The notes under the pieces: model-generated
Seen by the model: only the letters and a program-made list of their open reading frames with translations
What the model was told of the DNA's origin: nothing
The model's database searches: none
NCBI RefSeq assembly: GCF_016902615.1
Contig: NZ_JACJMB010000007.1
Span: 1-64,000, forward strand
DNA length: 64,000 nt
Source of the DNA: Collinsella tanakaei
GTDB taxonomy: Bacteria > Actinomycetota > Coriobacteriia > Coriobacteriales > Coriobacteriaceae
Reading direction: 5' to 3'
Made by a program: the position numbers and the translations under genes
In this document: positions 1-46,388 of the stretch, piece by piece
Layout of the letters: each line of letters opens with the position of its first letter
Position numbering within the stretch: the first letter of the stretch is position 1

Positions 1-60
1 ACTTGGGCGCGTATCGCGCGCCCAAGTGGCACCAAACTACCCCGTCCCCAATGAAGACAT
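1..60. repeat. Partial copy 1 of long palindromic repeat
   Basis: Right half of the repeat family, cut by the window edge. The central hairpin is ACTTGGGCGCG, a short loop, then CGCGCCCAAGT. It is followed by the shared right-hand core TGGCACCAAACTACCCCGTC and an outer arm ending ATGAAGACAT. The left outer arm would lie upstream of base 1. Confidence 0.8.
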
Positions 61-177
61 AGTGGGGATGTAACGTTTCGTACACCTAATTATTCGGTAC
101 CTTGACTTTCAGTTTCGCCGTAGTAATCTTTTTCGATCGAACCAGATTACCCGCGAAAAAAAAGAAAGGAGTACCGC

Positions 178-693
178 ATGTGTGTCAGCACGGAACCCGG
201 CCCCGACGGCAGCTCCGCCAAGGGCTTCGGTAGCCGCCGTGCGCCGGCCGATAAGCCGCAGCCGAACGACACGCCCGAGGAAGCCCGGGCCCGGCGCCTG
301 CTGTGGGATCTTGGCTATTTCAGCCATTACCTGCACTTCCATAGCGGCGGCCGTTCCGGCAGGGCGGCCATCATCTGCCTGCTCGCCAAAAACGACGGCC
401 AGATGTCGCAGCAGGAGCTCGGCGCCTATTTCGAGCTTCGCCCCGGCTCGCTCTCCGAGATTCTCGCCAAGATCGAGAACGCCGGCCTCATCGAGCGTAC
501 GCGCAATCCCGAAGACCGACGTCAGCTTTTCATCCGCCTGACCGAGAAGGGTTCCGAGGAGGCCGCTCGCGAGCAGGAAGCCAGAAAGCGCTTCCGCCAG
601 CGCGCGTTCTCGTGCATCTCGGCTGCAGAGCAGGAGCATCTCGTCGAGACCCTCGATACGATTCGCAAACATTGGGAGGAAATGGATGATTAA
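178..693 (+). CDS. MarR-family transcriptional regulator
   Basis: A 171-aa winged-helix regulator of the MarR family, which usually binds as a dimer to an operator at its own promoter and is released by a small ligand. The winged-helix region spans about residues 60-135. The recognition helix is preceded by QQELGAYFELRPGSLSEIL, and the wing carries the typical NPEDRRQLFIRLTEKG. An A/G-rich stretch (GAAAGGAG) sits a few bases before the ATG. Its stop overlaps the start of the first ABC exporter gene by 8 bp, so the three genes read as one operon. The context suggests it controls the exporter pair. The first 35 residues are poorly conserved-looking and the ligand is unknown. Confidence 0.88.
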   Translation: MCVSTEPGPDGSSAKGFGSRRAPADKPQPNDTPEEARARRLLWDLGYFSHYLHFHSGGRSGRAAIICLLAKNDGQMSQQELGAYFELRPGSLSEILAKIENAGLIERTRNPEDRRQLFIRLTEKGSEEAAREQEARKRFRQRAFSCISAAEQEHLVETLDTIRKHWEEMDD

Positions 694-2494
694 AACTCTC
701 ATGGGGAGCATCCGCGATTACAAGAAAGCGTCGATCGCCACCCCCGTCATCGTGTCGGGCGAGGTGGTCATGGAGGTCGCCATCCCCTTCGTGACCGCTC
801 AGCTCATCGATGCGATCCAGAATGGAGCGGATATCTCCGCCATGCTGCCCTACGCGGGCATCCTCGTGGCCATGGCGCTCGCCTCACTCGCCTTCGGCAT
901 CGGCGCGGGCGTCACGTGCTCTGAGGCTGCTTGCGGTTTCGCCAAGAACCTGCGCCACGACGTATTCGCCGCGGTGCAGCGCTTCAGCTTCGCCAACATC
1001 GATCAGTTCTCGAGCTCCTCGCTCGTCACGCGCCTGACCACGGACATCACCAACGTGCAGCTCGCCTACATGATGATCATCCGCACCGCTGTGCGCTGCC
1101 CGCTGATCCTCATCTGCGGCGTCGTCATGGCCTTCATCATGGGCGGTCCGCTCGCGTTCGTCTTCGTCATCATCGTACCGCTCCTCGGCTTCGGCCTGTT
1201 CAAGGTCGTGCGCACCGTGCACCCCATCTTCCGCGCGGTGTTCCATAAGTACGACGCGCTGAACGAGTCCATCGAGGAGAACGTCACGGGCATGCGCGAC
1301 GTGAAGAGCTACGTGCGCCAGGACTTCGAGAAGAAGAAGTTCGGCGTCGCCGCCCAGGACGTCTGCGCCGACTTCACGCGCGCCGAGAAGATCCTCGCGC
1401 TCAACGCCCCGATGATGAACTTCGCCGTCGACGTCGTGTTCGTCGTCATCATCCAGTTCGGCTCCTGGCTCATCATCTCCAGCCAGGGCACGCTGCTGAA
1501 CGTCGGCCAGCTCTCCGCGCTGACCACCTACGGCTTCATGATCCTCATGAGCCTCATGATGGTCTCCATGGTCTTCGCCATGATCACCATGGCCCAGGAG
1601 AGCGCCGAGCGCATCGTCGAGGTGATCGAGACCGAGCCGACCATCGAGAACCCGGAGCACCCCGTCACCTACATGCGCGACGGCTCCATCGATTTCGACG
1701 ACGTGACGTTCAAGTACTCCGAGAAGGCCGAGCACCGCGCGCTCGCCGAGATCGACCTGCACATCAAGAGCGGCGAGACGCTCGGCATCATGGGCGGCAC
1801 CGGCTCCGCCAAGACCTCGCTCGTGAACCTCATCAGCCGCCTGTACGACGTGACCGAGGGCTCCGTGAAGGTCGGCGGCGTGGACGTGCGCGACTACGAC
1901 CTCGAGTACCTGCGCAACAACGTGGCCGTCGTGCTGCAGAAAAACGTGTTGTTCTCCGGCACCATCAAGGAGAACCTGCGCTGGGGCAACCCGAACGCCT
2001 CCTACGACGAGCTCGTAGAGGTCTGCAAGCTCGCGCAGGCCGATGAGTTCATCCAGGGCTTCCCGCAGAAGTACGACACCTATATCGAGCAGGGCGGCAC
2101 GAACGTGTCCGGCGGCCAGAAGCAGCGCCTGTGCATCGCGCGCGCACTGCTGAAGCGCCCGAAGGTGCTGATCCTCGACGACTCCACGAGCGCCGTCGAC
2201 ACCAAGACCGATGCGCTCATCCGCGAGGGCCTGGCGCAGTACCTGCCCGATACCACCAAGATCATCATCGCGCAGCGCACGAGCTCGGTCGAGCACGCCG
2301 ACCGCATCCTGATCCTGGACAACGGCCACATCGCGGGCCTGGGCACGCATGAGGAGCTCATGCGGACGTGCGACATCTACCGCGATACCTATATCCAGCA
2401 GAACCGTACAGACGGAGAGGATGGATCCGCGACGGAGCAGCCGGCAGGGCAGCCCGCGACGGATGTCCAGACCACGGAAGGGGGTGTCGCGTAG
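686..2494 (+). CDS. ABC exporter subunit, TM-ATPase (degenerate site half)
   Basis: A 602-aa fused permease-ATPase, one half of a heterodimeric ABC exporter of the multidrug type in the cytoplasmic membrane. Residues 15-310 hold six membrane helices. The ATPase follows at about 330-570, with Walker A GGTGSAKTSLVN (an Ala where Gly is usual), Q-loop VVLQKNVLF, signature NVSGGQKQRL and Walker B VLILDDSTSAVD. The residue after Walker B is Asp instead of the catalytic Glu, as expected for the non-hydrolysing site partner in heterodimers. It overlaps the MarR gene by 8 bp and its stop abuts the next start. The exported substrate cannot be told from sequence. Confidence 0.92.
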   Translation: MIKTLMGSIRDYKKASIATPVIVSGEVVMEVAIPFVTAQLIDAIQNGADISAMLPYAGILVAMALASLAFGIGAGVTCSEAACGFAKNLRHDVFAAVQRFSFANIDQFSSSSLVTRLTTDITNVQLAYMMIIRTAVRCPLILICGVVMAFIMGGPLAFVFVIIVPLLGFGLFKVVRTVHPIFRAVFHKYDALNESIEENVTGMRDVKSYVRQDFEKKKFGVAAQDVCADFTRAEKILALNAPMMNFAVDVVFVVIIQFGSWLIISSQGTLLNVGQLSALTTYGFMILMSLMMVSMVFAMITMAQESAERIVEVIETEPTIENPEHPVTYMRDGSIDFDDVTFKYSEKAEHRALAEIDLHIKSGETLGIMGGTGSAKTSLVNLISRLYDVTEGSVKVGGVDVRDYDLEYLRNNVAVVLQKNVLFSGTIKENLRWGNPNASYDELVEVCKLAQADEFIQGFPQKYDTYIEQGGTNVSGGQKQRLCIARALLKRPKVLILDDSTSAVDTKTDALIREGLAQYLPDTTKIIIAQRTSSVEHADRILILDNGHIAGLGTHEELMRTCDIYRDTYIQQNRTDGEDGSATEQPAGQPATDVQTTEGGVA

Positions 2495-4465
2495 ATGAGC
2501 GTGAACGAGGACGCCAAGAAGGAATACGAGGCCAAGCGCCAAAACGTCGCCGGCCGCCAGAAGCCTGCCGACGGCAAGCAGGGCGGGCGCGGCAAGACGC
2601 TCGTGCGCCTCATCAAGACCCTGTTCCAGTTCTATCCCAAGATGCTGCCGATCGTGTTCGTGTGCATCATCGTCTCGGCCGTGCTCTCGGCCGTGCCCGC
2701 CATGTTCATGCAGCGGGCCCTCGAGGTCGTGACCGCCCACTGGCAGACCGGCGACTGGAGCGCCGTCGCCGGCCAGATCGGCGGCATCACCCTCGCGCTC
2801 GTGGGGGTGTACGTCATCGCGCTGACCTCGACCACCGTATACACCCGCATGATGGCCATCATCACGCAGGGCTCGCTGGAGAAGTTCCGCGAGCGCCTGT
2901 TCGACCACATGCAGGACCTGCCCATCAGCTACTTCGACCAGCACCAGCGCGGCGATATCATGAGCTACTACACCAACGATATCGACACGCTGCGCCAGAT
3001 GATCTCGCAGTCGCTGCCCAACATCACGCTGACCGTGATCACCTGCTTCTCCGTCGTGTTCGTCATGGTCTACTACAGCGTGTGGATGGCGCTTGTCGTG
3101 CTCATCGGCGTGTTCGTGATGGCCAACACCACCAAGACGCTCGGCGGCCGCTCCGCCCGCAACTTCGTGGCGCAGCAGCGCGAGATCGGCGTCGTCGAGG
3201 GACATGTCGAGGAGATCATGAACGGCCAGCGCGTCGTGAAGGTCTTCTGCCATGAGGACGCCGCCCAGGCCGACTTCGACGTGCGCAACGAGGCGCTGTT
3301 CCGCGCGAGCCGCGCCGCGAACATGTACACCAACACGCTCGGCCCGATCCTCATGAACCTCGGCAACCTGATGTATGTCATCGTGGCGCTCGCCGGCGGC
3401 ATCTTCATCGCCACGGGCGTGCCGAACCTGTCCATCTCGGGCCTCGGCTTCTCTATCGCCGTGACCGTTCCGTTCCTGAACATGACCAAGCAGTTCGCCG
3501 GCCAGATCGGCCAGATCTCCCAGCAGATCAACGCCGTGGTCATGGGCCTTGCCGGCGCGGAGCGCATCTTCGAGCTCATGGACGAGCAGCCCGAAGCCGA
3601 CGAGGGCTACGTCACGCTCGTGAACGCCAAGATGGAGAACGGCCAGCTCGTCGAGGTCGAGAGCGGTCGCCAGACCGGTCGCTGGGCCTGGAAGCACCCG
3701 CATGCCGACGGCACCTGCGAGCTCGTGCCGCTCCAGGGCGACGTGCGCCTGTCGCATGTCGACTTCGGCTACAAGCCCGGCCACACCGTGCTGCATGACG
3801 TGAGCGTGTGGGCGAAGCCCGGCCAGAAGATCGCCTTCGTGGGCGCCACCGGCGCGGGCAAGACGACCATCACGAACCTCATCAACCGCTTCTACGACAT
3901 CGCCGACGGCAAGATCCGCTACGACGGCATCAACATCAACAAGATCAAGAAGGACGACCTGCGCCGTTCGCTCGGCATGGTGCTGCAGGACGTGAACCTG
4001 TTCACCGGCACCGTCATGGACAACATCCGCTACGGACGTCTGGACGCCACCGACGAGGAGTGCATCGCCGCGGCCAAGCTCGCCGGCGCACACGGCTTCA
4101 TCGAGCGCCTGCCCGAGGGCTACAACACGATGCTGACTGACAACGGCTCGAACCTGTCGCAGGGCCAGCGCCAGCTGCTCTCGATCTCGCGCGCAGCCGT
4201 CGCCGACCCGCCGGTCATGATCCTCGATGAGGCAACTTCCTCGATCGACACCCGTACCGAGGCGATCGTCCAAAAGGGCATGGACGCCCTCATGAGCGGC
4301 CGCACCACGTTCGTGATTGCGCACCGCCTGTCGACCGTCCGCAACTCCGACGCGATCATCGTGCTCGACCACGGCCGCATCATCGAGCGCGGCAGCCACG
4401 ACGAGCTGATCGCCAAGCGCGGCACGTACTACCAGCTCTACACGGGCGCCTTCGAGCTCGAGTAA
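2495..4465 (+). CDS. ABC exporter subunit, TM-ATPase (catalytic half)
   Basis: A 656-aa partner of the preceding exporter half; its ATG directly follows the upstream TAG, so translation is probably coupled. A basic 35-residue N-terminal tail precedes six membrane helices (about 45-345). A roughly 50-residue linker (about 375-415) then leads into the ATPase. Walker A is GATGAGKTTITN, the Q-loop VLQDVNLFTG, and the signature NLSQGQRQLL (Gln for the first Gly). Walker B MILDEATSSID keeps the catalytic Glu, and the switch His is in FVIAHRLSTVRN. This is the normal complement to a degenerate partner. A strong terminator follows within 45 bp, closing the operon. Confidence 0.92.
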   Translation: MSVNEDAKKEYEAKRQNVAGRQKPADGKQGGRGKTLVRLIKTLFQFYPKMLPIVFVCIIVSAVLSAVPAMFMQRALEVVTAHWQTGDWSAVAGQIGGITLALVGVYVIALTSTTVYTRMMAIITQGSLEKFRERLFDHMQDLPISYFDQHQRGDIMSYYTNDIDTLRQMISQSLPNITLTVITCFSVVFVMVYYSVWMALVVLIGVFVMANTTKTLGGRSARNFVAQQREIGVVEGHVEEIMNGQRVVKVFCHEDAAQADFDVRNEALFRASRAANMYTNTLGPILMNLGNLMYVIVALAGGIFIATGVPNLSISGLGFSIAVTVPFLNMTKQFAGQIGQISQQINAVVMGLAGAERIFELMDEQPEADEGYVTLVNAKMENGQLVEVESGRQTGRWAWKHPHADGTCELVPLQGDVRLSHVDFGYKPGHTVLHDVSVWAKPGQKIAFVGATGAGKTTITNLINRFYDIADGKIRYDGININKIKKDDLRRSLGMVLQDVNLFTGTVMDNIRYGRLDATDEECIAAAKLAGAHGFIERLPEGYNTMLTDNGSNLSQGQRQLLSISRAAVADPPVMILDEATSSIDTRTEAIVQKGMDALMSGRTTFVIAHRLSTVRNSDAIIVLDHGRIIERGSHDELIAKRGTYYQLYTGAFELE

Positions 4466-4505
4466 GCGAGTAGATCTTCGCAGCGACGCGACCGTCGCAT
4501 ATGGG

Positions 4506-4560
4506 AAGCGGCGCGCACCCTTCGGCCGATGGCCCTCCGGGTGCGCGCCGCTTTTCTTGT
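4506..4560 (+). terminator. Rho-independent terminator of the MarR-ABC operon
   Basis: A 15-bp stem (AAGCGGCGCGCACCC paired with GGGTGCGCGCCGCTT) with an 18-nt loop, followed by TTTTCTTG. Confidence 0.88.
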
Positions 4561-4569
4561 CGCGCTGGC

Positions 4570-4929
4570 CTACTCGGAGCCGAGCACCTTGCGCGCCTTC
4601 TCCAACACCGCCTCGCGGATGAACTTCGACTTCGTCTGGCCGCAGGCATCCGCCGCCCGCTTCACGTAGTCGACAAGCGACCGGGGCATCTTGAACGTGA
4701 CGACCGCAGAAGGCTCGTCCTCAGACAGGGGCGGGCGCCCCGGAGGCGTCGCGTGCATGCGGCGCCATTCGCGCTTCGTGGGACCGCCGGGAGACCCGGG
4801 GCCGAGAAAGACAGGGCCCCATTCGCCCTCCGGTATCTCACCACGATCCCACGGCGCCGCCAGCTTATCTAGCAGCTCCTCTGTTAGTTCCGTTCCGTCT
4901 TCAGTGTGAAACGGTTTTATCTTCGCCAT
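4570..4929 (-). CDS. BrnA-like antitoxin with C-terminal ribbon-helix-helix
   Basis: A 119-aa protein whose last 45 residues look like a ribbon-helix-helix DNA-binding domain: strand AVVTFKMPRSL, helix VDYVKRAADACG, turn, then helix KSKFIREAVLEKARKVL. The N-terminal 70 residues are proline-rich and polar, as in the toxin-binding part of BrnA antitoxins. It lies 12 bp downstream of the small gene at 4942-5208. Toxin first, antitoxin second is the BrnT-BrnA order. It is expected to neutralise the partner and to repress the promoter through the palindrome upstream of the toxin gene. The family assignment rests on architecture and order; the RHH call itself is firm. Confidence 0.72.
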   Translation of the reverse strand: MAKIKPFHTEDGTELTEELLDKLAAPWDRGEIPEGEWGPVFLGPGSPGGPTKREWRRMHATPPGRPPLSEDEPSAVVTFKMPRSLVDYVKRAADACGQTKSKFIREAVLEKARKVLGSE

Positions 4930-4941
4930 ATTCGCCTCACC

Positions 4942-5208
4942 TCACAGAAGACCGGGTGCTTTCCTCACCTTATTTGTCGCCCTCATCGCATGAAAGATGA
5001 CCCATCGTTCCTTTTCCTCGTTCCATACGGCAACCAGCTGAATATCATGCCCTGTTGCGTCCGGCCCAATCATGACGTGCTGCGGAGGATACGGACCATG
5101 GCGTACGTGCTCCTTATACGCATTTCGCCATACATGCAAAATGTCTTGCTTGCTTAATCCATGCTGGTAAGCATGGGAAGCTACTATCGGTCTGGAACGC
5201 ATGGGCAC
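4942..5208 (-). CDS. BrnT/DUF4258-like ribonuclease toxin candidate
   Basis: An 88-aa basic protein, first gene of a two-gene module with an RHH antitoxin. Visible signposts are HGLSKQDILHVWRNA near the start, a central VMIGPDATGHDIQLVAVW and the C-terminal VIFHAMRATNKVRK. That layout (N-terminal helix, strand with IGPD..G, final HAM/R segment) matches small RelE/BrnT-fold proteins annotated as toxins in actinobacteria. The start is GTG at 5208 or ATG at 5202; AAAGGT and a G-run precede both. A 28-bp palindrome lies 10 bp upstream of the start, as expected for an autoregulated toxin-antitoxin operon. Toxic activity is inferred, not shown. Confidence 0.65.
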   Translation of the reverse strand: MPMRSRPIVASHAYQHGLSKQDILHVWRNAYKEHVRHGPYPPQHVMIGPDATGHDIQLVAVWNEEKERWVIFHAMRATNKVRKAPGLL

Positions 5209-5217
5209 CCCCTACCT

Positions 5218-5245
5218 TTAGTATTACTTTATATGGTAAAACTAA
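5218..5245. promoter_or_regulatory. Palindromic operator of the toxin-antitoxin module
   Basis: Inverted repeat TTAGTATTAC, 8-bp spacer, GTAAAACTAA: the arms match at 9 of 10 positions. It is AT-rich in a GC-rich genome and lies just upstream of the toxin start. On the minus strand a TTGAAC hexamer followed after 17 bp by TACCAT would place the -10 inside it. It is a likely site for the RHH antitoxin. Confidence 0.6.
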
Positions 5246-5250
5246 TTATC

Positions 5251-5285
5251 TTGCAGTTCAACGCTGTTTGAGCGTTGTGTTGCAA
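5251..5285. repeat. Stem-loop / inverted repeat upstream of the toxin operon
   Basis: Nested arms TTGCA...TGCAA and CAACGCT...AGCGTTG around a 5-nt loop, overlapping the proposed -35 of the toxin promoter. The rest of the gap to 5511 shows no gene or other signal that I can support. Confidence 0.45.
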
Positions 5286-5511
5286 GCGTAGATGCGATCC
5301 CTTGATGCCCATTCGGAAGTGGCCGACAAAATGCCTGTCGCATTCTTTCACGAACCTATTCGGGACCTGACCGGGGATGGATTACGCAGGGCTTGAGAGC
5401 AGGTGCCGCCCGAGGCTCCCCGGTTGTTTGTCATGGACGGCAGCCCACAGAAGCGCTCCGCATGACCATTCTTCACATGTGGATCCAGCCAACTAGAATG
5501 TGTCGGATGCC

Positions 5512-6333
5512 CTACACGAGGCCGAAGTGCTCAAGGCCGGTGGCGACGCCATCGTGCTCCGCCGTATCGGTCACATATGCCGCCATCGCCTTGACCGAAT
5601 CGAGGGCGTTGCCCATGGCGACGGGCGTCTCCACCGCACGCAGCATCGGCAGGTCGTTCTCGGAATCGCCGAACGCATAGGTGTTGTGGACGCCGTGCTG
5701 CAGATACGAGAGCGCCGAGCGAACGCCCGCGCCCTTGTCGACGCCGAGCAGGGTGCACTCGCCGGTGCCGAGGCCCAGATCGTAGCGCCCGTAATGCGCA
5801 TCGATGAAATCGGAGATCTGCGCGAGCTTCGGCAGCATGTCGTTTGTGAAGGAGAACTTGCTGAAGCGCATATCCGTGAGGTCGCGCATCTCCTCCAGCG
5901 AGTGCGTGACCACGGTGCCCGGGATGTCGGTGTAATCGCCGCCGTTCGGCAGGTAGGCCGCGAAGGTGTTCGTTCCCTCGAACACAGCCTCGATACCGAG
6001 GTCGGTGAAGCGCAGAAGCGTCTCGACGAGGAGCTGCTCGTCAATCATGCGCTCCTCGATGACGCGCCCGTCCATGTAAAGGCAGGCGCCAGCGGAAAGC
6101 ACGAGGCCGGCGGGCTCCAAGTCGAGCAGCGGCTGCTGCACCAGGCAGAGCGGGCGACCGGTGCAGATGATGGCCGCATGGCCGCGTGCCCGCAGACGCG
6201 CGAACGCATCGGCGACCGCGGCAGACGGGCGGGCCCGGGCGACGTTTTCCGCCGCGTTGTTCGCCGGATCATGCCAGACGATCGTGCCGTCGACGTCGAA
6301 AAAGATAACCGCGTTCGCGTCGTTGCCCTGCAT
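5512..6333 (-). CDS. HAD-superfamily (Cof-type, IIB) phosphatase
   Basis: About 273 aa. A cytosolic HAD hydrolase of the Cof/YkrA subfamily, which dephosphorylates sugar phosphates, nucleotides or similar small molecules. Motif I is FFDVDGT near the N-terminus, motif II IICTGRP, motif III a Lys in FSKFSFTND, and motif IV FGDSENDLPML. The type IIB cap occupies the middle, with TRP-like turns after residue 85. ATG codons at 6339 and 6333 are both possible. AAAGGA lies 9 nt before 6333 but only 3 nt before 6339, so I chose the second. It stands alone, with no operon partner. The substrate is unknown. Confidence 0.88.
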   Translation of the reverse strand: MQGNDANAVIFFDVDGTIVWHDPANNAAENVARARPSAAVADAFARLRARGHAAIICTGRPLCLVQQPLLDLEPAGLVLSAGACLYMDGRVIEERMIDEQLLVETLLRFTDLGIEAVFEGTNTFAAYLPNGGDYTDIPGTVVTHSLEEMRDLTDMRFSKFSFTNDMLPKLAQISDFIDAHYGRYDLGLGTGECTLLGVDKGAGVRSALSYLQHGVHNTYAFGDSENDLPMLRAVETPVAMGNALDSVKAMAAYVTDTAEHDGVATGLEHFGLV

Positions 6334-6669
6334 GCGCATCCGTCCTTTCTTGACTGCGCGCCATTATATGACGGCGATATGCGTAGGAGCATGAGCCACT
6401 TTGGTTTTGTACGGGATGTTCCGGCGTTTTAGCTTGAGCAAACGGCGGGCCTGGGCGCTTGCCCTCTTATCTCACATTCCCCGCGCCACGTGCATAGTGC
6501 GGATTTCCCACGGTCTTACCTGCGCAGGTTCGCCACCGCGCGCCAGCATATTATGATGCGAAGAACATATTCCCAGCACGCGGCGGCGATGCGCGCGATT
6601 CGGCTGCTCCTGCACCTCGGCACAGTGGCGCACGCAGGCATGCCGCCGCATACGTTCGAAAGGTTTCCC

Positions 6670-8993: not shown

Positions 8994-9090
8994 GGTGTGT
9001 CCTTCAGGGGGACGGGGCAGTTTGGTGCCATCGCGCGCCGAGCCGGCGCGCGATGGCACCAAACTGCCCCGTCCCCCTGAAGGACACACC
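8994..9090. repeat. Copy 2 of long palindromic repeat (97 bp, perfect)
   Basis: Two perfect 47-bp arms around a 3-nt loop (AGC). The core reads GGGGACGGGG then CAGTTTGGTGCCA. The outer arm begins GGTGTGTCCTTCAG and the central arm is TCGCGCGCCG. It lies between rlmKL and kup. Confidence 0.95.
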
Positions 9091-11224: not shown

Positions 11225-11255
11225 CAGCGCAAACGGCACCCATGCGCATGACATG

Positions 11256-11298
11256 AAGCGCGCCCGTCGCCATCGTTGGCGGCGGGCGCGCTTTTGTT
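11256..11298 (+). terminator. Rho-independent terminator of kup
   Basis: A 17-bp stem (AAGCGCGCCCGTCGCCA with its complement) closed by TCGT, then CTTTTGTTCTTG. Confidence 0.9.
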
Positions 11299-11299
11299 C

Positions 11300-11383
11300 T
11301 TGTCCTCATCGGGGACGGGGTTGTTTGGTGCCACCTAGCCCGGGCTAGGTGGCACCAAACAACACCGTCCCCGATGAGGACAA
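11300..11383. repeat. Copy 3 of long palindromic repeat (84 bp)
   Basis: Arms of 42 bp meet directly at CCC/GGG, with one mismatch. The core is GGGGACGGGG then TTGTTTGGTGCCA, the outer arm TTGTCCTCATC and the central arm CCTAGCCC. It sits between the convergent kup and nitroreductase genes. Confidence 0.95.
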
Positions 11384-11401: not shown

Positions 11402-12211
11402 TTAGGCGCGCAGCTCCTTCCCCATCCAATTCTTGAGCCACAGCTCCATGGAGCGGCCCATCTCGACCATGAAGTCGGAGGTGTGCTTGCGGGTGTAGAT
11501 ATCGATGACGCGTTCGCCCGGCGCGCTCGCATGGGGGCGGAACATCCGGTCCATCTCGGCCACCTGGGCGTCAAGCGTGGCCGCATCGGAGCGCCGATAG
11601 CGCTCGGACATGACGAGGTTCACCGTGGGGTGCGGTGTGGCGGGGCGGTCTTTGGCGGGCGCGCCCAGGATGAGCATCGAGAGCGGAAGCGTGTGCTCGG
11701 GCAGATCGAGCAGCGCGCGCACCTCCTCGGCACACTCCACGATGTCGCCGATGTAGCAGCTCCCGAGGCCCACCGCCTCGGCGGCGACCACGGCGTTCTG
11801 AGCGGCGATGACGGCATCCTGTGCGGCGATGGCGAACTCGCCGAGACCCGGCTCGCGACGCGGCTGCTTGCCCGTGCGCGCCACGAACTCGGGCGTGAAG
11901 CAGCCCACGTGCTCGAACAGGTCAATCCACTTGCAGTAGTCGACGACGAAGACGAGCGCCCAGGGGGCCTTCGCGATCATGGGCTGGTTGTCGCAGAGCA
12001 CGGCCAGGCGGTCGAACGTGGCCTGCTCGCGGATGTCGATGATCGAGTACATCATCATGGCGCCCGCCGACGGCGCGCGCGACGCCGCGTGCAGCACGGC
12101 CTCGCGCTGCGCATCCGTCACGGGCGTATCCGGCGCGAACGCGCGCGTCGAGCTGCGCTGCTCGATCACCGCGAGCACCTCGTTGGCGTACGGCGTGCAG
12201 GTATCGTTCAT
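11402..12211 (-). CDS. Nitroreductase-family flavoprotein
   Basis: A 269-aa FMN-dependent NAD(P)H oxidoreductase. FMN-phosphate contacts are visible in EQRSSTRAFAPDTPVTD near the N-terminus, in AASRAPSAGAMMMYSII (about 43-59), and in GLGSCYIGDIVE (about 145). The C-terminal 55 residues include an extension ending KNWMGKELRA. Family members reduce nitroaromatics, quinones or flavins; the native substrate cannot be read. It is preceded by AGGAGAGG a few nt before the ATG. It is convergent with kup across palindrome copy 3 and lies downstream of guanine deaminase on the same strand, with a 109-bp gap between them. Confidence 0.9.
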   Translation of the reverse strand: MNDTCTPYANEVLAVIEQRSSTRAFAPDTPVTDAQREAVLHAASRAPSAGAMMMYSIIDIREQATFDRLAVLCDNQPMIAKAPWALVFVVDYCKWIDLFEHVGCFTPEFVARTGKQPRREPGLGEFAIAAQDAVIAAQNAVVAAEAVGLGSCYIGDIVECAEEVRALLDLPEHTLPLSMLILGAPAKDRPATPHPTVNLVMSERYRRSDAATLDAQVAEMDRMFRPHASAPGERVIDIYTRKHTSDFMVEMGRSMELWLKNWMGKELRA

Positions 12212-16086: not shown

Positions 16087-16125
16087 CGGACGGTAAAGTA
16101 ACGGACATCCGGCTCCTCAGGGGTC

Positions 16126-16222
16126 GGATGTCCTCAAAGGGGACGGGGTAGTTTGGTGCCACTTGGGCGCGCGGTACGCGCCAAAGTGGCACCAAACTAC
16201 CCCGTCCCCTTTGAGGACATCC
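16126..16222. repeat. Copy 4 of long palindromic repeat (97 bp)
   Basis: Arms of 46 bp around a 5-nt loop, with one mismatch. The core is GGGGACGGGG then TAGTTTGGTGCCA, the outer arm GGATGTCCTCAAA and the central arm CTTGGGCGCG. The right end touches the flavodoxin stop codon. It lies between convergent genes. Confidence 0.95.
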
Positions 16223-16755
16223 TACAAACCGAGAGCGTCCTTGGCTGCCGCGGCAATGGCATCGATGTCCGCTGCGTTCGGATGTTCGAGCGCCGCATCG
16301 AAGTTGGCAATCATGGCCTCGATGCGCGCATCGCCAGGCTTGTCGACGAGCATCGCCTCGTAGCGGGCGCGCACGGCAGGACCCATCTTGCCCTGGCACA
16401 TCGCCCCGCCGAGATATGTCGCATCCTGCGGGAGCTTCTCCTCGACACCGGTAAGAATACGCTCGAAGTACGCTGGTTCGCCGCCGAAGCCGGCGGTGCC
16501 GAACAGGAAGACCCGCTTGCCGTGGAGCCGATCGAGAAGCTCGGCCATCTCAGGGGTGCAGCTTCCCTTGTCGGTCCAAAAGCCCGCAAGGACCGTATCC
16601 GCTTGCGCGACGGCCTTGGAGGCCTCCGCGACCGCGCCTGTCGTCAGCTCGGTCAGCGTCGCCTCCGCTCCCGCCTCGGCAAGTGCCTTCTGCAGGCCCT
16701 CGGCCACGAGCTTCGTGTTGCCCCCGCGGCTGTTGTACACGATTGCGTAGGTCAT
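16222..16755 (-). CDS. Flavodoxin-family protein
   Basis: A 177-aa single-domain flavodoxin-fold protein, a low-potential FMN electron carrier. The FMN phosphate loop is near residue 8 (VYNSRGGNTKLVAEGL). Further conserved stretches are AGFWTDKGSCTPEM, VFLFGTAGFGGEPAYF and GGAMCQGKMGPAVRARYE. These are typical of a flavodoxin subfamily common in gut anaerobes that includes BilS-like proteins, but no bilirubin reductase partner is nearby, so I do not assign that role. The ATG at 16755 follows GGGTGAGG; the upstream in-frame ATGs lack a better site. The gene is alone, convergent with the LTA-synthase-like gene. Confidence 0.85.
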   Translation of the reverse strand: MTYAIVYNSRGGNTKLVAEGLQKALAEAGAEATLTELTTGAVAEASKAVAQADTVLAGFWTDKGSCTPEMAELLDRLHGKRVFLFGTAGFGGEPAYFERILTGVEEKLPQDATYLGGAMCQGKMGPAVRARYEAMLVDKPGDARIEAMIANFDAALEHPNAADIDAIAAAAKDALGL

Positions 16756-20731: not shown

Positions 20732-20849
20732 GCGCCCGTGCGCTCGATGGGAACGGGTGCCCGGCAGAGGCTCCTTATGGCTGCTTCCTCCCGGACCTGA
20801 CCAGATTCGGAACATATCGTCACCCGAACCCATCGAGCGCGCAGGCGCT
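20732..20849 (-). ncRNA. ffs: Signal recognition particle RNA (small bacterial type)
   Basis: On the minus strand the apical domain is textbook: GGTCAGGTCCGGGAGG, then AAGCAGCCATAAGGAGCC. This is the Ffh-binding asymmetric loop and the GGAA-type tetraloop region. Long closing helices pair CGCTCGATGGG at one end with CCCATCGAGCG at the other, and GGCGC with GCGCC outside. It folds as a single hairpin of about 115 nt like 4.5S RNA and works with Ffh in co-translational targeting to the membrane. The exact ends are estimated from the outer helix. Confidence 0.92.
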
Positions 20850-38967: not shown

Positions 38968-38968
38968 C

Positions 38969-39012
38969 ACGCGTGGCCGGCACCTCGAGTCGAAGCGGTG
39001 CCGGCCACGCGT
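38969..39012. terminator. Bidirectional hairpin terminator
   Basis: A 16-bp perfect stem (ACGCGTGGCCGGCACC and its complement) with a 12-nt loop, between convergent genes. There is only a short T run (TTGCCTTACT) on the plus side. Confidence 0.7.
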
Positions 39013-39038
39013 TGCCTTACTAATATATATGAGGTTCG

Positions 39039-40513: not shown

Positions 40514-40581
40514 CGGTACCTCTCTCAAATCGTGACGCCATTATACGGGTCGTGCTGCCCTGATACCCAGCGGCACCCCAA

Positions 40582-40620
40582 ATGACACAAACGGGGCGAC
40601 CCCTCACGGAGTCGCCCCGT
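40582..40620 (-). terminator. Terminator of the ferredoxin-AOR-cytochrome operon
   Basis: On the minus strand a 10-bp stem ACGGGGCGAC/GTCGCCCCGT is followed by TTGTGT. It lies 58 bp after the cytochrome gene. Confidence 0.75.
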
Positions 40621-40677
40621 CTTCATGCGCGCTGCATGTACGAGCGATGTCGATACCGCGCGCTTATCAGCGTGTGA

Positions 40678-41352
40678 CTACTCGGAAGCCTCGAACAGCA
40701 TCGGGGTAGTCCAGCCCTCGGGCACAGCGCCCGTCTTGCCGTCGCCCAGCTCCTGGACGACCCAGCCCTCGGGCACGCCGCCCTCGCCCTCCCAGGCACC
40801 GACCTGGTGGCAGCTCGCGCAGGTGAAGACGCTCTGGTCGTGCATCAGGTGGCAGGAGTTGCACTGCTGCACGCCGTGGTAATCGCTGTGCGGGTCGAAG
40901 CTCCAGTCGGCGGTGGAGGACTCGGTGGCGCCCGGCATCACGCCGGCCCCGGCGTGGCAGCCGCTCTGCAGGCAGAAGTCGTTGGAGAAGGCGACCTTCT
41001 CGAACGGCTGCGGGTAGTCGCCGGACAGCTGCACCTGGACCTCGTGCACCATCTGGGGCAGCGTGGCCTCATGGCAGCCGAGGCACTGGTTGTTCGCGGC
41101 GGCGCGGTGCTTGTAGACCAGCGAATCCGTGTCGTTCACGAACGTGTCGTAGTACTTGCCCATCGTGCTGTGGCAGATGGTGTCGCAGCACTCAGGGGTG
41201 GCATGCCAAGCCCAGCCGGCAACACCGATGACCGTCACGACGACGACCAGGGCGATGACGATGGGAAGGCGCTTGCCCTTCCAGTTGATCTTCTTCTTCG
41301 GAGCCTTCTCGGTGGCGGTGGCCTCCGTGGTCTCCTTCTTCTCGTCAGCCAT
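40678..41352 (-). CDS. NapC/NrfH-like membrane-anchored multiheme cytochrome c
   Basis: 224 aa. A single N-terminal helix (LPIVIALVVVVTVIGVAGWAW, about 29-49) anchors an extracytosolic domain with five potential haem c sites. Three are CXXCH: C90-C93-H94, C164-C167-H168 and C178-C181-H182. Two are CX4CH: C55-C60-H61 and C127-C132-H133. The CX4CH motifs are rarer but known in multihaem cytochromes. The first site has a nearby Met, as in NapC/NrfH. The C-terminal 35 residues are a Pro/Gly-rich tail. It is the third gene after the Tat ferredoxin and the AOR, 23 bp downstream, and probably passes electrons between the quinone pool and those partners. Confidence 0.88.
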   Translation of the reverse strand: MADEKKETTEATATEKAPKKKINWKGKRLPIVIALVVVVTVIGVAGWAWHATPECCDTICHSTMGKYYDTFVNDTDSLVYKHRAAANNQCLGCHEATLPQMVHEVQVQLSGDYPQPFEKVAFSNDFCLQSGCHAGAGVMPGATESSTADWSFDPHSDYHGVQQCNSCHLMHDQSVFTCASCHQVGAWEGEGGVPEGWVVQELGDGKTGAVPEGWTTPMLFEASE

Positions 41353-41375
41353 TGTGTTCTCCTCTCGAGCTGCGC

Positions 41376-43619
41376 TTAGGCACTCAGCGCCGGGTTGTCA
41401 CCGCAGTACTTCTCGAGCACGTGGTCGTACTTGCGCGTGCGCTCGTCGTACTTGGCGCCACCCTCGGTGAGCAGACCGAGCTCCTCGAGGTCGGCCTCCT
41501 GCTCGGTCAGGCCGAGGTCCTCCAGGCACTCCTTCGTCGGGCAGCCGAGCTCCTCGTCCCAACCGAAGCGCTTGTAGAGCATGGTAAGGGCCGTCTGCCA
41601 GTCCTCGCTCTCCATCTTGTCGGTGCCCTCGGTGAACGGCTCGATGTCCGGATCCTTGGTGAACGGCCACTCGGTGATGACGTCGTGGACGTTGCGGAAG
41701 TCGTTGCAGCCCATGTTGCCGTCAGCGTCGGTCATGCCGCGGGCGGTGTTGACGCGCTGGAGGGTCATGATGCGCTCGCCGGCCTTGTACAGGTCGTCGA
41801 TGGTGACCTCCTGGCCGGTGACCGCGGTGTAGAACTGGGCCTCGAGGTCCAGGTCGCCACGGTAGCTGCGGTCCTTGTCCGGAGCCATGGCCATCGGCCA
41901 CACCCAGTTGCACAGCGTCAGCGAGTCATGCAGGACGTCGGTGACGATGCACCACCACGCGAACTCGGCCTTCGCCTCGTTCATCGGGGTGTAGTTCTTG
42001 TCGGGGTCGACCGCGTCCTCGCTGCCCCACATCTCCGCGGCCATCTCCTTCTTGAGGTCGATGGGCAGGCCGCAGCCCTGGAAGTTGACGGCGGAGTGGA
42101 TCATGTCGTCACGGTTGAAGACCATGTTGTACAGGCCGCCGACCTGGGCGAAGCACTCGATGGCGTGATGGACCGGCCAGCCGCGGTAGTTGATCAGGCA
42201 GGAACGGGTGTCGTCGAACCACTTGGCGTCGTTCCACTTCTCCGTCCAGACAAGCGGGCCGTGCCCGAGCCAGGCGATGGGCTTGTTCTCGGTGTCGTTG
42301 GACGCGATGTCGGAGAGGATCTTGATGAACGGCGTGGGGTCGCCGGCCATGATCTGGTCGAAGCCGTACTCGGCGAACTGGTCGCCGAGCTCGCGCTCGA
42401 GGATGCCGTCCACATAGGTGTGGGCGATATCGCGGTAGAGCTGGGCATAGTTGCACCACAGGCCCAGATCGTCAACGACAGCCTGGATGAGCAGGTTGTA
42501 CAGGATGGACTGCTCGGTGAGCGTGCCTTCCTCGGTCGTGGTGCCGGGGACCTTCATCATGCTCTGCATGTAGCTGGAGAACGGGAAGTTCGGCACGCAG
42601 GTGTTGCCCATGGACTCGTAGCCGGTCATCTCGAGGATCTGCGGCTGCTTCACCTGGGCGTAGCAGCGCACGGGGCAGCCGTGGCAGCCGGCCATCTTGA
42701 CGGTGTACTTCTCAGCCTCGGGTCCGAGGTCCTTCGTGGACTTCATGCAGCGATAGCCCATGGTGTTGGGCTCATGCGGCTTCGGCTCGCCGGTCTCGAT
42801 GGGACCGCCCTCGGCGGCAGCCCAGTACAGACCCTTGCGGGCCGTCCAGCGGGAGCCCTTGTCGTAGTACTCGGCCCAGGACTGCTGGGTGGAGGGCACG
42901 ACATGGTTGTTGTTGGAGCCGATGACCTGGTCGATCATGTAGTCGGACAGGTCGGCGACCATCTGCGGGTCGGCGACGTTGACGCCCTTGGTGCCGCGCA
43001 CGACGACCGCCTTGACGTTCTTGGAACCGAGCACCGCGCCCAGGCCGGCACCCGCGGAGTGGCTGCGGGTGTTGATGACGCAGGCGTACGGAAGCAGGTT
43101 CTCGCCCGCCGGGCCGATGGCGGCCACGCAGACGTCGACGCCGTGCTTCTTGCACAGGGCCTCGTTGGTCTCACGGGTGCCCTTGCCCCACAGGGCGGAG
43201 GCGTCCTCGATCGAGATCTTGTCGTCATCGATGTAGATGTAGACCGGCTTGTCGGCCTTGCCCTCGATGATCAGGCCGTCATGGCCGGAGTACTTGAGCT
43301 TGGCGCCCAGCTGACCGCCGCAGTGGCAGTCGACGACCAGGTGGTCGGTCGTGAAGGTCGACAGGGTGGCCCAGGTGGAGCGGCCGGCCAGCGGCACGCC
43401 GGAACCGGTCAGAGGACCGACGCAGAGAACGGCCTTGTTCTCCTCGTCCATCCAGTCGACGCCGGCGGGCACCTCGTCGTACATGATCTTGTTGGCGAAG
43501 CCCATGCCACCGATATAGTCCTTCTGCATCGCCTCATCGGACTCTTCGGTGATCTCGCCAGTCGAAAGGTTGACACGGGCGATCCAGCCCATCCAACCGT
43601 AAGAGACGTTATCAGCCAT
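41376..43619 (-). CDS. Aldehyde ferredoxin oxidoreductase-family tungsten/molybdenum enzyme
   Basis: A 747-aa enzyme of the AOR family, which binds a bis-pyranopterin with W or Mo and one [4Fe-4S] cluster. It starts GWMGWIARVNLSTGEITEES. Pterin-binding segments GGMGFANKIMYDEV, VGPLTGSGVPLAGRSTW and DHLVVDCHCGGQLGAKLKYSG are present, as are AAIGPAGENLLPYACVINT and AGLGAVLGSKNVKAVVVRG. The cluster ligands are in MAGCHGCPVRCYAQ (near 310), with the fourth Cys in SLTLCNWVWP (near 570). It is about 130 residues longer than classical AOR. It has no Tat signal of its own. It sits 18 bp downstream of a Tat ferredoxin and is close to E. coli YdhV by context. Its natural substrate is unknown. Confidence 0.92.
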   Translation of the reverse strand: MADNVSYGWMGWIARVNLSTGEITEESDEAMQKDYIGGMGFANKIMYDEVPAGVDWMDEENKAVLCVGPLTGSGVPLAGRSTWATLSTFTTDHLVVDCHCGGQLGAKLKYSGHDGLIIEGKADKPVYIYIDDDKISIEDASALWGKGTRETNEALCKKHGVDVCVAAIGPAGENLLPYACVINTRSHSAGAGLGAVLGSKNVKAVVVRGTKGVNVADPQMVADLSDYMIDQVIGSNNNHVVPSTQQSWAEYYDKGSRWTARKGLYWAAAEGGPIETGEPKPHEPNTMGYRCMKSTKDLGPEAEKYTVKMAGCHGCPVRCYAQVKQPQILEMTGYESMGNTCVPNFPFSSYMQSMMKVPGTTTEEGTLTEQSILYNLLIQAVVDDLGLWCNYAQLYRDIAHTYVDGILERELGDQFAEYGFDQIMAGDPTPFIKILSDIASNDTENKPIAWLGHGPLVWTEKWNDAKWFDDTRSCLINYRGWPVHHAIECFAQVGGLYNMVFNRDDMIHSAVNFQGCGLPIDLKKEMAAEMWGSEDAVDPDKNYTPMNEAKAEFAWWCIVTDVLHDSLTLCNWVWPMAMAPDKDRSYRGDLDLEAQFYTAVTGQEVTIDDLYKAGERIMTLQRVNTARGMTDADGNMGCNDFRNVHDVITEWPFTKDPDIEPFTEGTDKMESEDWQTALTMLYKRFGWDEELGCPTKECLEDLGLTEQEADLEELGLLTEGGAKYDERTRKYDHVLEKYCGDNPALSA

Positions 43620-43637
43620 TGCGTTTCTCCCTCTACG

Positions 43638-44360
43638 TTACGCGATCTTGCCGCCGGCGACGAAGTCCTGCTCCTCGCTGACGAGCGGCAGCGGATTCTC
43701 CTGACGGGTTGGGCCGGAAGCGTGGTTGACGTCCTCCCACTCGACAAGCTCCAGGGCGCCGTTCGGGCACTGCTCGGCGCAGCGACCGCAGGCGATGCAC
43801 TTGGAAGACTTGCCGGTCACGGTGTTCACCGTGGGCATGTGCCACGGGCAGGCGGCAACACAGGTGCCGCAGCCGACGCACTTCTCGGGATCGACCTCAC
43901 GCACGCCGTTGTCGTTCGTGACGATGGCGCCGTGCGGGCAGGCGGTCTGGCACAGGGCGGTGGTGCACATGTGGCAGGTGCGGACATTCCACTCCATGGA
44001 GTAGTAGATGCCGTCGCCACTGCCGAGCTCGCTACCGTAGAAGTAGCCGTCGTTCACGTGGATGCGGGCAGCCGCCGGCTGCGCCACACCGTCGTTCAGA
44101 AGGGTGCAGCTCATCTCGCAGCGCTGGCAACCGGTGCACTTGGAGCGGTTCACCTTCAGCACGTGAGACGGGGTCGCATAGTAGTCGATCTTGCCCTTCG
44201 AACTCGTCGGAGCCGCTGCAGCGGAGTCGGGGAGCAGCCCCAGCGCCACCATGCTGGCCACGAACGCGCTCGATACCTTCACGAACCCGCGACGGGTGAA
44301 GAAGGAGTCGAGACGGTCCGCGCCGGAGCCCACATGCTCCAAAGCGGTGTTCTCTTTCAT
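43638..44360 (-). CDS. Tat-exported ferredoxin with four [4Fe-4S] motifs
   Basis: 240 aa. The N-terminal Tat signal is FTRRGFVKVSSAFVASMVALG, with an Ala-rich cleavage region near residue 48. Four cysteine clusters follow: CTGCQRCEMSC, CHMCTTALCQTACP, CVGCGTCVAACPWH and CIACGRCAEQCP. This is the DmsB/NrfC type electron-transfer subunit. GGGGGG lies 3-8 nt before the ATG. It is first in the operon with the AOR and the cytochrome, so it likely carries electrons between those two. The AOR lacks a signal and could be carried out on this one. An AT-poor gap of about 540 bp to the divergent radical SAM gene holds its promoter. Confidence 0.88.
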   Translation of the reverse strand: MKENTALEHVGSGADRLDSFFTRRGFVKVSSAFVASMVALGLLPDSAAAAPTSSKGKIDYYATPSHVLKVNRSKCTGCQRCEMSCTLLNDGVAQPAAARIHVNDGYFYGSELGSGDGIYYSMEWNVRTCHMCTTALCQTACPHGAIVTNDNGVREVDPEKCVGCGTCVAACPWHMPTVNTVTGKSSKCIACGRCAEQCPNGALELVEWEDVNHASGPTRQENPLPLVSEEQDFVAGGKIA

Positions 44361-44421
44361 AGTCCCCCCTTTTCGGTCTTCGGCCGCGGCGCCCAGGGCA
44401 GACGCCGGACCCGTTTCACGA

Positions 44422-44447
44422 CATAGCGCACGGCGATGTGCGCCATA
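44422..44447. promoter_or_regulatory. Inverted repeat upstream of the ferredoxin-AOR operon
   Basis: CATAGCGCAC, 6-bp spacer, GTGCGCCATA, arms matching at 8 of 10, about 65 bp before the ferredoxin start. It is a possible regulator site in the 538-bp divergent gap 44361-44898. I see no other firm feature there. Confidence 0.35.
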
Positions 44448-44898
44448 ACATGTCCACACTATTTTCTCTATGCGCGCGCGTATACCGTCACCTCCTTATG
44501 GGTAATTTGACCCAGGCGGCGAAAAATGGACGATTTGGCTGTCACCTGGAAGAGGGTATGCCGATTACCTGCGGGTGAGGCCTATCTCCCACCGAGCTGA
44601 TGGGTGGAGGATTCCGTCAGCGAAATCGACGCGCGCACCATGCCATCACATCATTTGACCGAACCAGATATGCGGATAGCTCTGCGCGAAACGCCATATA
44701 CGTCATGCATTTTACCTGCGCTGATTCAATGGCACCGAACCACATCCGCACCACAACACTGCGCTGGTGCATAGAGACGCAGACGGTTCGCGTCACCGTC
44801 GCGGGGCGCTCCGGCTTCTTACGCCGTACGTCCGCAGGGAGTGTGGCAAAATGGGAGAGTTGTCACACGCGGGCACGCCCCGCAGGAGGTATACGCCA

Positions 44899-46263
44899 AT
44901 GCTCTCTGAACGCTTGCTCTCGAAGACCATCGGTTTCGGCGCGACGCATCTGCTGCGCTCCAAGAACGCGGTCAGCCCCATGGTCCCCGCGCCGCAACAC
45001 GGTCATGAGTATCTGCTCTACGTGCACGTCCCGTTCTGCGACGTGCTATGCCCCTACTGCTCCTTCACGCGCTTCCCGTTCAAGGAGGACCTTGCACGCC
45101 GCTATTTCGAGGCCCTGCGCGCCGAGCTCAAGATGATCCACGACTTGGGCTACGAGCCGCCGAGCGCCTATATCGGCGGCGGCACGCCCACCATCATGAT
45201 GGATGAGCTCGAGCGCACCATCGACTACATGCGCGAGCTTTTCCCCACCATCAAGGAGGTCTCCAGCGAGACCAACCCGCCGCACCTCGACCGCAAGCGC
45301 CTGGAGCGCATCTCGCGCATGGTGCAGCGCTTCTCGGTAGGTGTCCAGAGCTTCGACGACACGCTGCTCAAGCGTATGGACCGCTACGAGAAGTACGGCA
45401 GCGCCGCTGAGATTGTCGAACGCATCCAGAGCGTCCATGACATGTTCGACACGTTCAACGTCGACATGATCTTCAACTTCCCCGGTCAGACCCCGGAGAT
45501 GATCCTGCACGATATCGACGTCTTCAAGACAACCGGTGCGAACCAGATCACCTACTACCCGCTCATGGCGTCGCCCGGCTCGGAGAAGCTCATGGAGACC
45601 TGCTTCCACGGGCAGGTCGACTACAGCCTGGAGAAGACGCTCTACAACACGCTCTTCGACCGCATGACCGCGCCCGTAAGCGAAGGGGGCGCCGGATTCT
45701 TTGCCACCGACGTCTACACGTTCGCCGCCGACCGCAACGCCATGATCGACGAGTACGTCGTGGACTACGCCGAGTACGTCGGCGCCGGATGCGGTGCGTA
45801 CTCGTTCCTCGACGAGCACATCTTCAACAACGATTCCTCGGTATCCGGCTATATCCAGCGCATCGAGAGCGGCAACATGAGCGTCGCCTCTTGCATCGAG
45901 ATGGGTCACGCCAACTGGAAGCGCTACCGCATGGGACGTGAGCTGTTCGGCCTGCGTCTCGACAACCGCGCTTGGCGCCGCGACTATGGCAAGTACATCC
46001 AGTACGACATGCCGATCGAGTACGGCTACCTCGCCGCGAACGGCGCGTTCGCCACGAACAACGCCGACGAGCTCACGCTCACACGCCGCGGACGCTACCT
46101 GGTCCTTGTCATGATGCGTCAGATCTTCATCGGCATGAACACCGAGCGCGATCGTCTGCGTACGCAGCTGCCGGCAAACGAGCGCAAGATGTTCTCGGAC
46201 TCCGCCGAGCGTCAGATCGCCGCCGCGCGTGCAGCCGATGCGGCGGAGCATCGCGCCAACTAA
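44899..46263 (+). CDS. HemN-like radical SAM protein (coproporphyrinogen III oxidase family)
   Basis: 454 aa. A radical SAM enzyme with the cluster motif FCDVLCPYCSF (CX3CX2C, about residue 50). It has GGGTPTIMMDELE, the substrate-side SSETNPPHLD, the RFSVGVQSFDD motif, and NVDMIFNFPGQT. These place it in the HemN/HemW/ChuW group. True coproporphyrinogen oxidation, haem handling (HemW) and anaerobic haem breakdown (ChuW/HutW) cannot be told apart here. The C-terminal 100 residues (ALGY... type) are divergent. ATG at 44899 follows AGGAGGT by 9 nt. It is divergent from the ferredoxin-AOR-cytochrome operon, which needs haem c. Confidence 0.82.
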   Translation: MLSERLLSKTIGFGATHLLRSKNAVSPMVPAPQHGHEYLLYVHVPFCDVLCPYCSFTRFPFKEDLARRYFEALRAELKMIHDLGYEPPSAYIGGGTPTIMMDELERTIDYMRELFPTIKEVSSETNPPHLDRKRLERISRMVQRFSVGVQSFDDTLLKRMDRYEKYGSAAEIVERIQSVHDMFDTFNVDMIFNFPGQTPEMILHDIDVFKTTGANQITYYPLMASPGSEKLMETCFHGQVDYSLEKTLYNTLFDRMTAPVSEGGAGFFATDVYTFAADRNAMIDEYVVDYAEYVGAGCGAYSFLDEHIFNNDSSVSGYIQRIESGNMSVASCIEMGHANWKRYRMGRELFGLRLDNRAWRRDYGKYIQYDMPIEYGYLAANGAFATNNADELTLTRRGRYLVLVMMRQIFIGMNTERDRLRTQLPANERKMFSDSAERQIAAARAADAAEHRAN

Positions 46264-46296
46264 AACGAAGCTGACATCAAAACACCTGTTCAGTGC

Positions 46297-46388
46297 GGTG
46301 TCTCCATGGGGGACGGGGTAGTTTGGTGCCATGCGGGCGCGACCGCGCCCGCATGGCACCAAACTACCCCGCCCCCCATGGAGACACC
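46297..46388. repeat. Copy 5 of long palindromic repeat (92 bp)
   Basis: Arms of 45 bp around a 2-nt loop, with one A/C mismatch. Core GGGGACGGGG then TAGTTTGGTGCCA, outer arm GGTGTCTCCATG, central arm TGCGGGCGCG. It lies between convergent radical SAM and NifU-like genes. Confidence 0.95.

What the first reader, a model, noticed from the sequence alone, without database searches (positions are those of the whole stretch)
1..46388. Family of five long near-perfect palindromes with covarying arms
Copies at 1-60 (partial), 8994-9090, 11300-11383, 16126-16222 and 46297-46388 share a core (GGGGACGGGG then about TAGTTTGGTGCCA) and its complement. The outer ends (TGTCCTCA, TGTCCTTC, TGTCTCC, TGTCTTC) and the central arms (for example CCTAGCCC, TGCGGGCGCG, TCGCGCGCCG) differ between copies, yet each copy remains self-complementary over 42-47 bp. 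Base changes on one arm are mirrored on the other. That pattern needs either selection on a hairpin or a copying mechanism that regenerates symmetry. All are intergenic, three lie between convergent genes, and none has a T run. It looks like a REP/BIME-like or MITE element, possibly moved by a RAYT-type enzyme elsewhere in the genome.
Basis: seen in the sequence. Interest (0 to 1): 0.78.

Follow-up and report, generated by a model that had tools for sequence, protein, structure and literature searches.

The report
RAYT-linked near-perfect palindrome family in Collinsella
A gut bacterium of the genus Collinsella carries about a hundred copies of a hairpin-forming DNA repeat that matches the ends of its single REP-type transposase gene; the two arms of each hairpin change together, so it is an unusually clean case of a known kind of domesticated mobile repeat that sister species have replaced with their own versions.

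Summary
Four complete palindromes with arms of 45-49 bp and one half (cut by the contig start) lie at the stated places. They belong to a family with 127 half-units in the 2.45 Mb genome (control 0) and at most 8 loose matches in any of 399 other Coriobacteriia genomes. The genome has one Y1 (HUH) transposase gene, of RAYT/TnpAREP type, flanked by inverted copies of the same half-unit. RAYTs of relatives carry their own GGGAC-core repeats, and repeat similarity follows RAYT similarity (Mantel r 0.56, 0/5000). At an orthologous gap, sister species hold unrelated palindromes or none. So this is a REPIN-RAYT system of the poorly described GGGGAC/'TIRYT' kind. Mirror covariation is extreme: 28 copies have 28 different haplotypes, about 94 mirrored steps against 15 one-arm differences, and 0/10000 permutations as symmetric. 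Symmetry reaches a few bases into the flanks, copy by copy. In C. tanakaei, palindromes of one family sit inside another. I favour RAYT-dependent spread with arms re-symmetrised by hairpin-templated copying. The first is strongly supported by association; the second is inferred. New variant of a known kind, not a new category.

The parts
1..60 (-). Right half of a palindrome cut by the contig start: mirrored centre 1-26, REP half-unit about 27-59 on the minus strand
   Evidence: window = contig C57 from base 1; the other arm is at the end of contig C7 with the same TGTCTTCATT outer end and shared centre
8994..9090 (.). Complete palindrome (REPIN); REP halves about 8998-9030 (+) and 9054-9086 (-), mirrored arms to the 3-nt centre 9041-9043
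   Evidence: 47-nt arms, 100%; RNA fold -110.8 kcal/mol, z -20
11300..11383 (.). Complete palindrome; REP halves about 11301-11333 (+) and 11350-11382 (-), short centre CCTAGCCCGGGCTAGG; one one-arm change (GGTG for GGGG)
16123..16225 (.). Complete palindrome; REP halves about 16129-16161 (+) and 16187-16219 (-)
   Evidence: 49-nt arms, 96%
46297..46388 (.). Complete palindrome; REP halves about 46299-46331 (+) and 46354-46386 (-)
   Evidence: 45-nt arms, 98%

Best explanation
A species-specific population of REPINs: inverted doublets of a 33-nt REP-like unit with a GGGGACGGGG core, spread or formerly spread through the genome by the single HUH/Y1 RAYT (TnpAREP-like) transposase whose gene carries the same units on both sides. 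The RAYT probably recognises the unit as folded single-stranded DNA and nicks and rejoins it (inferred from E. coli TnpAREP; not shown here). The two arms stay identical because the hairpin is periodically used as its own template, by replication template switching or mismatch repair within the folded strand, during movement or ordinary replication, so a change in one arm is either erased or copied to the other (inferred from the mirrored substitution pattern). Shown here: family, copy number, RAYT linkage, species specificity, mirrored changes, turnover at one orthologous gap. Inferred: actual mobility and the copying step.
For: 127 half-units with 0 in the reversed-pattern control. Only one Y1_Tnp gene, flanked by inverted units. 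H60, H62 and Y119 are invariant in 15 homologues. Of 74 RAYT loci, 57 have an exact inverted repeat of 12 nt or more on both sides (10% for shuffled partners), 43 with a GGG(G)AC-type core (control 5%). REP similarity tracks RAYT identity, Mantel r 0.56, 0/5000, mostly from pairs above 60% identity. Sister C. tanakaei An791 (G065) has 76 halves of another unit that also flank one of its RAYTs. No other of 399 class genomes has more than 8 matches to our unit. Orthologous gap of 11300: different palindromes or none in sisters. Symmetry: core mismatch within a copy 0.8% against 12% between copies, inner arm 8.7% against 48%, 0/10000 permutations; 28 distinct haplotypes, 94 mirrored steps against 15 one-arm; 405 mirrored against 89 one-arm differences in close copy pairs. 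Bertels and Rainey 2011 (PMC3116915) report compensatory changes as common in REPIN arms; template switching is known to homogenise inverted-repeat arms (PMC8604942, PMC8794818; abstracts).
Against: No movement was observed; only one genome of this species is held, so no polymorphic or empty site within the species could be read. Mirrored changes could also be inherited from many already symmetric source copies, or kept by selection on the hairpin. The RAYT reading frame runs into the downstream unit and may not be intact. The NCBIfam RAYT model is matched below its cut-off. The GTAG tag of classical REPs is not conserved here.
Confidence: 0.8

Rival explanations
1. Bidirectional transcription terminators or mRNA-stabilising hairpins: each palindrome is kept because transcripts of both neighbouring genes need the hairpin, and compensatory mutations are selected one arm after the other.
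For: Strong fold (-110.8 kcal/mol); most copies lie just downstream of genes and few between divergent genes (approximate gene calls).
Against: No T run. About half of the non-edge palindromes lie between same-strand genes. The gap at 11300 already has a terminator-like hairpin with a T-rich tail at 11255-11294. Solitary half-units without a hairpin partner exist. The same sequence is tied to the RAYT and is absent from sister species. Sequential compensation should leave many one-arm intermediates, but only 15 one-arm differences stand against about 94 mirrored steps.
Confidence: 0.1
2. Mobile REPINs in which the mirrored variants are simply inherited: many perfectly symmetric source copies diverged long ago, each gave rise to daughters, and there is no current symmetry-restoring process.
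For: Subfamily marks (TTTGG/TTCGG; GGTGCCA/GGAGACA/GGGGACA) are shared by groups of copies.
Against: Every one of 28 clean copies has its own mirrored haplotype, so some process must make new symmetric variants. Mirror symmetry also reaches copy-specific flank bases outside the unit.
Confidence: 0.2
3. An ordinary MITE mobilised by a DDE or IS-type transposase with terminal inverted repeats and target duplications.
For: Short non-coding inverted-repeat element, intergenic.
Against: No direct target duplications; flank identity is inverted, not direct. The only gene found bearing these ends is the Y1 gene.
Confidence: 0.04

Closest known systems
REPINs (REP doublets forming hairpins) with RAYTs, Pseudomonas fluorescens SBW25 (Bertels and Rainey 2011, PMC3116915)
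   Same: Inverted REP doublets forming long hairpins, intergenic, many copies, linked to a specific RAYT, compensatory changes in the arms, solitary units also present
   Different: Different core (GGGGAC rather than a GTAG-type REP); symmetry over the whole element including centre and a few flank bases; longer RAYT with an HTH-like C-terminus
TIRYT genes / TIRtrons with TIRs sharing GGGGWSAS (Di Nocera et al. 2013, PMC3733652)
   Same: Tyrosine transposase genes flanked by inverted repeats with a GGGGWSAS core; repeats can be single, dimeric or grouped elsewhere in the genome; double palindromic TIRs reported
   Different: Our core is GGGGACGG (position 7 departs from the consensus); a text search of that paper found neither Actinobacteria, Coriobacteri- nor Collinsella; copy-by-copy mirror covariation is not documented in the parts read
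TnpAREP subclass 2.1 (Quentin et al. 2018, PMC6006769)
   Same: Long Y1 proteins with an extra C-terminal HTH-like domain, probably the TIRYTs
   Different: That paper found no REP-like sequences near subclass 2.1 genes; here such a gene sits with a population of over 100 units
E. coli REP/BIME with TnpAREP (PMC8266576)
   Same: Palindromic units in inverted doublets beside a single HUH transposase gene
   Different: E. coli TnpAREP needs the GTAG tetranucleotide and a bulged stem; GTAG is not conserved here and no common single-unit stem was established

Membership tests
REPIN-RAYT system | Short palindromic unit in high copy, mainly intergenic | tested here: met
   127 half-units; intergenic in nearly all cases by approximate gene calls
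REPIN-RAYT system | Units occur as inverted doublets that fold into a hairpin | tested here: met
   33 pairs complete in the assembly, fold; solitary units also occur
REPIN-RAYT system | A RAYT gene flanked by the same unit, usually one gene per REP type | tested here: met
   Single Y1_Tnp gene with inverted units on both sides
REPIN-RAYT system | RAYT has HUH motif and catalytic tyrosine | tested here: met
   H60, H62 and Y119 invariant in 15 homologues
REPIN-RAYT system | Protein scores above the curated RAYT model cut-off (NCBIfam NF047646) | tested here: not met
   58.5 bits against cut-off 80; Pfam Y1_Tnp cut-off is passed. The model is an equivalog model, so a divergent branch may fall below it
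REPIN-RAYT system | Units are moved by the RAYT | not testable with these tools
   No second strain of the species and no experiment
Classical GTAG REP | Conserved unpaired GTAG-type tetranucleotide at one end | tested here: not met
   GTAG occurs inside the unit in 23 of 38 exact cores; others read GCAG, GTTG, GCTG or GTGG, and neither RAYT-flanking copy has GTAG preceded by the full GGGG core
TIRYT/TIRtron | Flanking inverted repeats with GGGGWSAS motif | tested here: inconclusive
   Ours is GGGGACGG (7 of 8 positions); many related loci have GGGGACAG
TIRYT/TIRtron (TnpAREP subclass 2.1) | Extra C-terminal HTH-like domain | tested here: inconclusive
   A conserved C-terminal stretch R..LR..GLT..Q..RLTGIG is seen in the alignment but no Pfam HTH model passed the threshold
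IS/MITE with target-site duplication | Direct target duplications at the ends | tested here: not met
   Flanks show short inverted, not direct, identity

The most novel reading that the evidence does not exclude
The palindrome is rebuilt as a mirror image whenever a copy is made or passes through single-stranded DNA, and insertion favours the tip or centre of existing hairpins. This would give copy-specific mirror symmetry that runs past the unit into the flanks and would produce nested palindromes, such as the 87-bp-arm composite in C. tanakaei An791. The RAYT system would then be a self-templating palindrome factory rather than a cut-and-paste element.
Probability: 0.25. Interest if true: 0.75.

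Novelty: new variant of a known kind. Interest (0 to 1): 0.5.

Why it matters
The GGGGAC/HTH branch of RAYTs was described as lacking REP-like sequences nearby (PMC6006769). These Collinsella genomes show such genes tied to populations of over 70-100 units, different in each species, and at one gap in the same orthologous place. With many Collinsella species and paired RAYT-REP sets, the genus would be a good system to test whether RAYTs still move REPINs and whether hairpin arms are kept identical by templated copying or by selection.

Tried and rejected
Rfam at gathering threshold: only tRNAs and SRP RNA in the window, no match at the palindromes. PDB by sequence: no hit at E <= 0.01; no structure prediction was attempted. 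A count of G-T wobble intermediates was dropped because a transition always gives a wobble on one strand. Gene context by home-made codon scoring is approximate: it put the wrong strand beside 46310, corrected by Pfam. The empty-site comparison did not give insertion junctions because intergenic DNA of sister species is too diverged. Folding of single half-units gave no common structure, so a single-unit hairpin shared by all lineages is not established.

Full report
WHAT IS THERE. The four complete palindromes are the longest close inverted repeats of the window: 8994-9090, 11300-11383, 16123-16225 and 46297-46388, with 45-49 nt arms at 96-100%. The copy at 1-60 is half an element because the window begins at the first base of contig C57 of a 92-contig, 2.45 Mb assembly. 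The end of contig C7 carries the matching other arm. Many other contig ends also fall inside palindromes, so copy number is underestimated. The core has 9 matches in the window against 0.01 in shuffles.

FAMILY SIZE AND ANATOMY. Genome-wide there are 61 + 66 half-units with up to 3 mismatches and none in the reversed-pattern control. The half-unit is about 33 nt, TGTCCTCATYGGGGACGGGGTAGTTTGGTGCCA, with subtypes ending TTCGGTGCCA, TTTGGAGACA, TTTGGGGACA or TTTGAGGACA. In a palindrome two half-units face each other and enclose a GC-rich mirrored arm. By script, 113 halves have full context: 76 are in pairs and 37 are not, but several of those 37 are cut by contig ends or have truncated partners. 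Unpaired units more often read ATT at positions 8-10 than paired ones (13/37 against 3/76, Fisher p 2.4e-5), as does the unit upstream of the RAYT.

MIRROR COVARIATION. In 33 pairs complete in the assembly, arm mismatch within a copy is 0.8% in the core, 9.6% in the outer part and 8.7% in the inner arm, against 12%, 29% and 48% between copies. No permutation of arms among copies in 10000 was as symmetric (50 mismatches against mean 295, minimum 209). Pairs were picked by core matches on both sides, which limits core divergence but not the outer or inner parts. In 28 clean copies (4 or fewer mismatches) there are 28 distinct mirrored haplotypes, and a minimum spanning tree needs 94 mirrored steps against 15 one-arm differences (45 against 8 in the REP part). 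Choosing clean copies lowers the one-arm count; the full set of 33 is the one used in the permutation. Symmetry runs on outside the unit: mean contiguous extension 1.91 bp against 0.64 when flanks are re-paired (0/5000). These flanks are inverted, not direct, so they are not ordinary target-site duplications.

THE TRANSPOSASE. The genome has one Y1_Tnp gene, on contig C36, outside the window. It passes the Pfam cut-off, and its only NCBIfam match is REP-associated tyrosine transposase, below that model's cut-off. H60, H62 and Y119 are invariant in 15 homologues. Half-units lie at C36:15893 (+) and C36:16980 (-), on either side of the gene, which sits between an RsfS-like gene and a DNA polymerase IV-like gene (assigned by eye). 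Orthologues in the same place in C. tanakaei An791 (G065, 54%) and an uncultured Collinsella (G008, 53%) carry related but different units: TGGCCTCATTGGGGACGTAGCC and TGTCTCCATTGGGGACGGGGGT. The names come from matching contig lengths of the two collections. Of 74 RAYT loci tested, mostly from Coriobacteriia, 57 have an exact inverted repeat of at least 12 nt on both sides against 10% in shuffled pairs, 43 with a GGG(G)AC-type core. REP and RAYT similarity correlate (Mantel r 0.56, 0/5000), carried mainly by pairs above 60% protein identity.

SPECIES SPECIFICITY AND TURNOVER. In 60 relatives and 399 other genomes of the class no genome has more than 8 matches to our unit, and those are two-mismatch relatives of other families. 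The gap orthologous to 11300 is occupied in sisters by other repeats: G065 has a near-perfect palindrome of its own TTTAGGGGACAGG family, G018 a different one, G016, G023 and G024 GGGAAAATAGGGACAGG-type units, while G013 shows none. That G065 family has 76 halves and flanks a G065 RAYT. In 400 kb samples, G065, G008 and G018 each have several families of long palindromes. Because those were found by a palindrome search, they show existence, not an unbiased measure of symmetry.

NESTING. In G065, copies of the TTTAGGGGACAGG family sit inside palindromes of the TGGCCTC..GGGGACGTAGCC family at symmetric positions (L154, L160, L161, L163), with one composite of 87-bp arms. Other copies are nested on one side only or not at all (L151, L156, L158). 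This could mean insertion at the tip of a hairpin, or outward copying of one flank to the other. The two were not separated.

HOW IT PROBABLY WORKS. Spread by the RAYT on single-stranded DNA is inferred from linkage, from E. coli TnpAREP chemistry (PMC8266576) and from REPIN work (PMC3116915). Arm identity by hairpin-templated copying is inferred from the mirrored pattern; template switching that homogenises inverted-repeat arms is established elsewhere (PMC8604942, PMC8794818; abstracts seen). A terminator role is not excluded as a by-product but does not explain RAYT linkage, solitary units or turnover.

KNOWN OR NEW. Long hairpin REPINs with compensatory arm changes are known (PMC3116915), and RAYT-like genes with GGGGWSAS inverted repeats are known as TIRYTs (PMC3733652). 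The HTH-bearing TnpAREP subclass 2.1, likely the same group, was reported to lack nearby REP-like sequences (PMC6006769). Our protein was not placed in that classification by a tree. The present system is best filed as a new variant: a large, species-specific, almost perfectly symmetric GGGGAC-type REPIN population in Collinsella.

Noticed in passing
L223 (match at 12027) and L154, L160, L161, L163 (Collinsella tanakaei An791, G065): Nested palindromes: one REP family inserted at symmetric positions inside palindromes of another, with arms up to 87 bp.
   Followed up: partly
L031 1468-2484 (G000:C36): The RAYT reading frame continues for about 338 aa, running through the downstream REP unit and antisense to the polymerase IV-like gene, whereas most homologues end near 250 aa; its C-terminus may be altered.
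   Followed up: no
L215:19460 and L229:16660, 18685 (G065): A further long-palindrome family, GATGTCCACTTTCAGGACGGAGATGTTTCCGGACATTCG, without GGGAC core and without an identified transposase.
   Followed up: no
Contig ends of G000, e.g. C57:1, C57:99852, C7:57760, C36:12, C36:18316: Many assembly breaks fall inside these palindromes, so short-read genomes of the genus undercount them and may be broken at them.
   Followed up: partly
window 20741-20836 (-): Small bacterial SRP RNA gene; the I5 inverted repeat at 20732-20848 corresponds to it.
   Followed up: yes
G177 (same order), C1:402913 and others: A related unit GGGGACGGGTTCGTTTGGTCCCA in 7 places, and a variant in an eighth, in a genome of another genus.
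   Followed up: no
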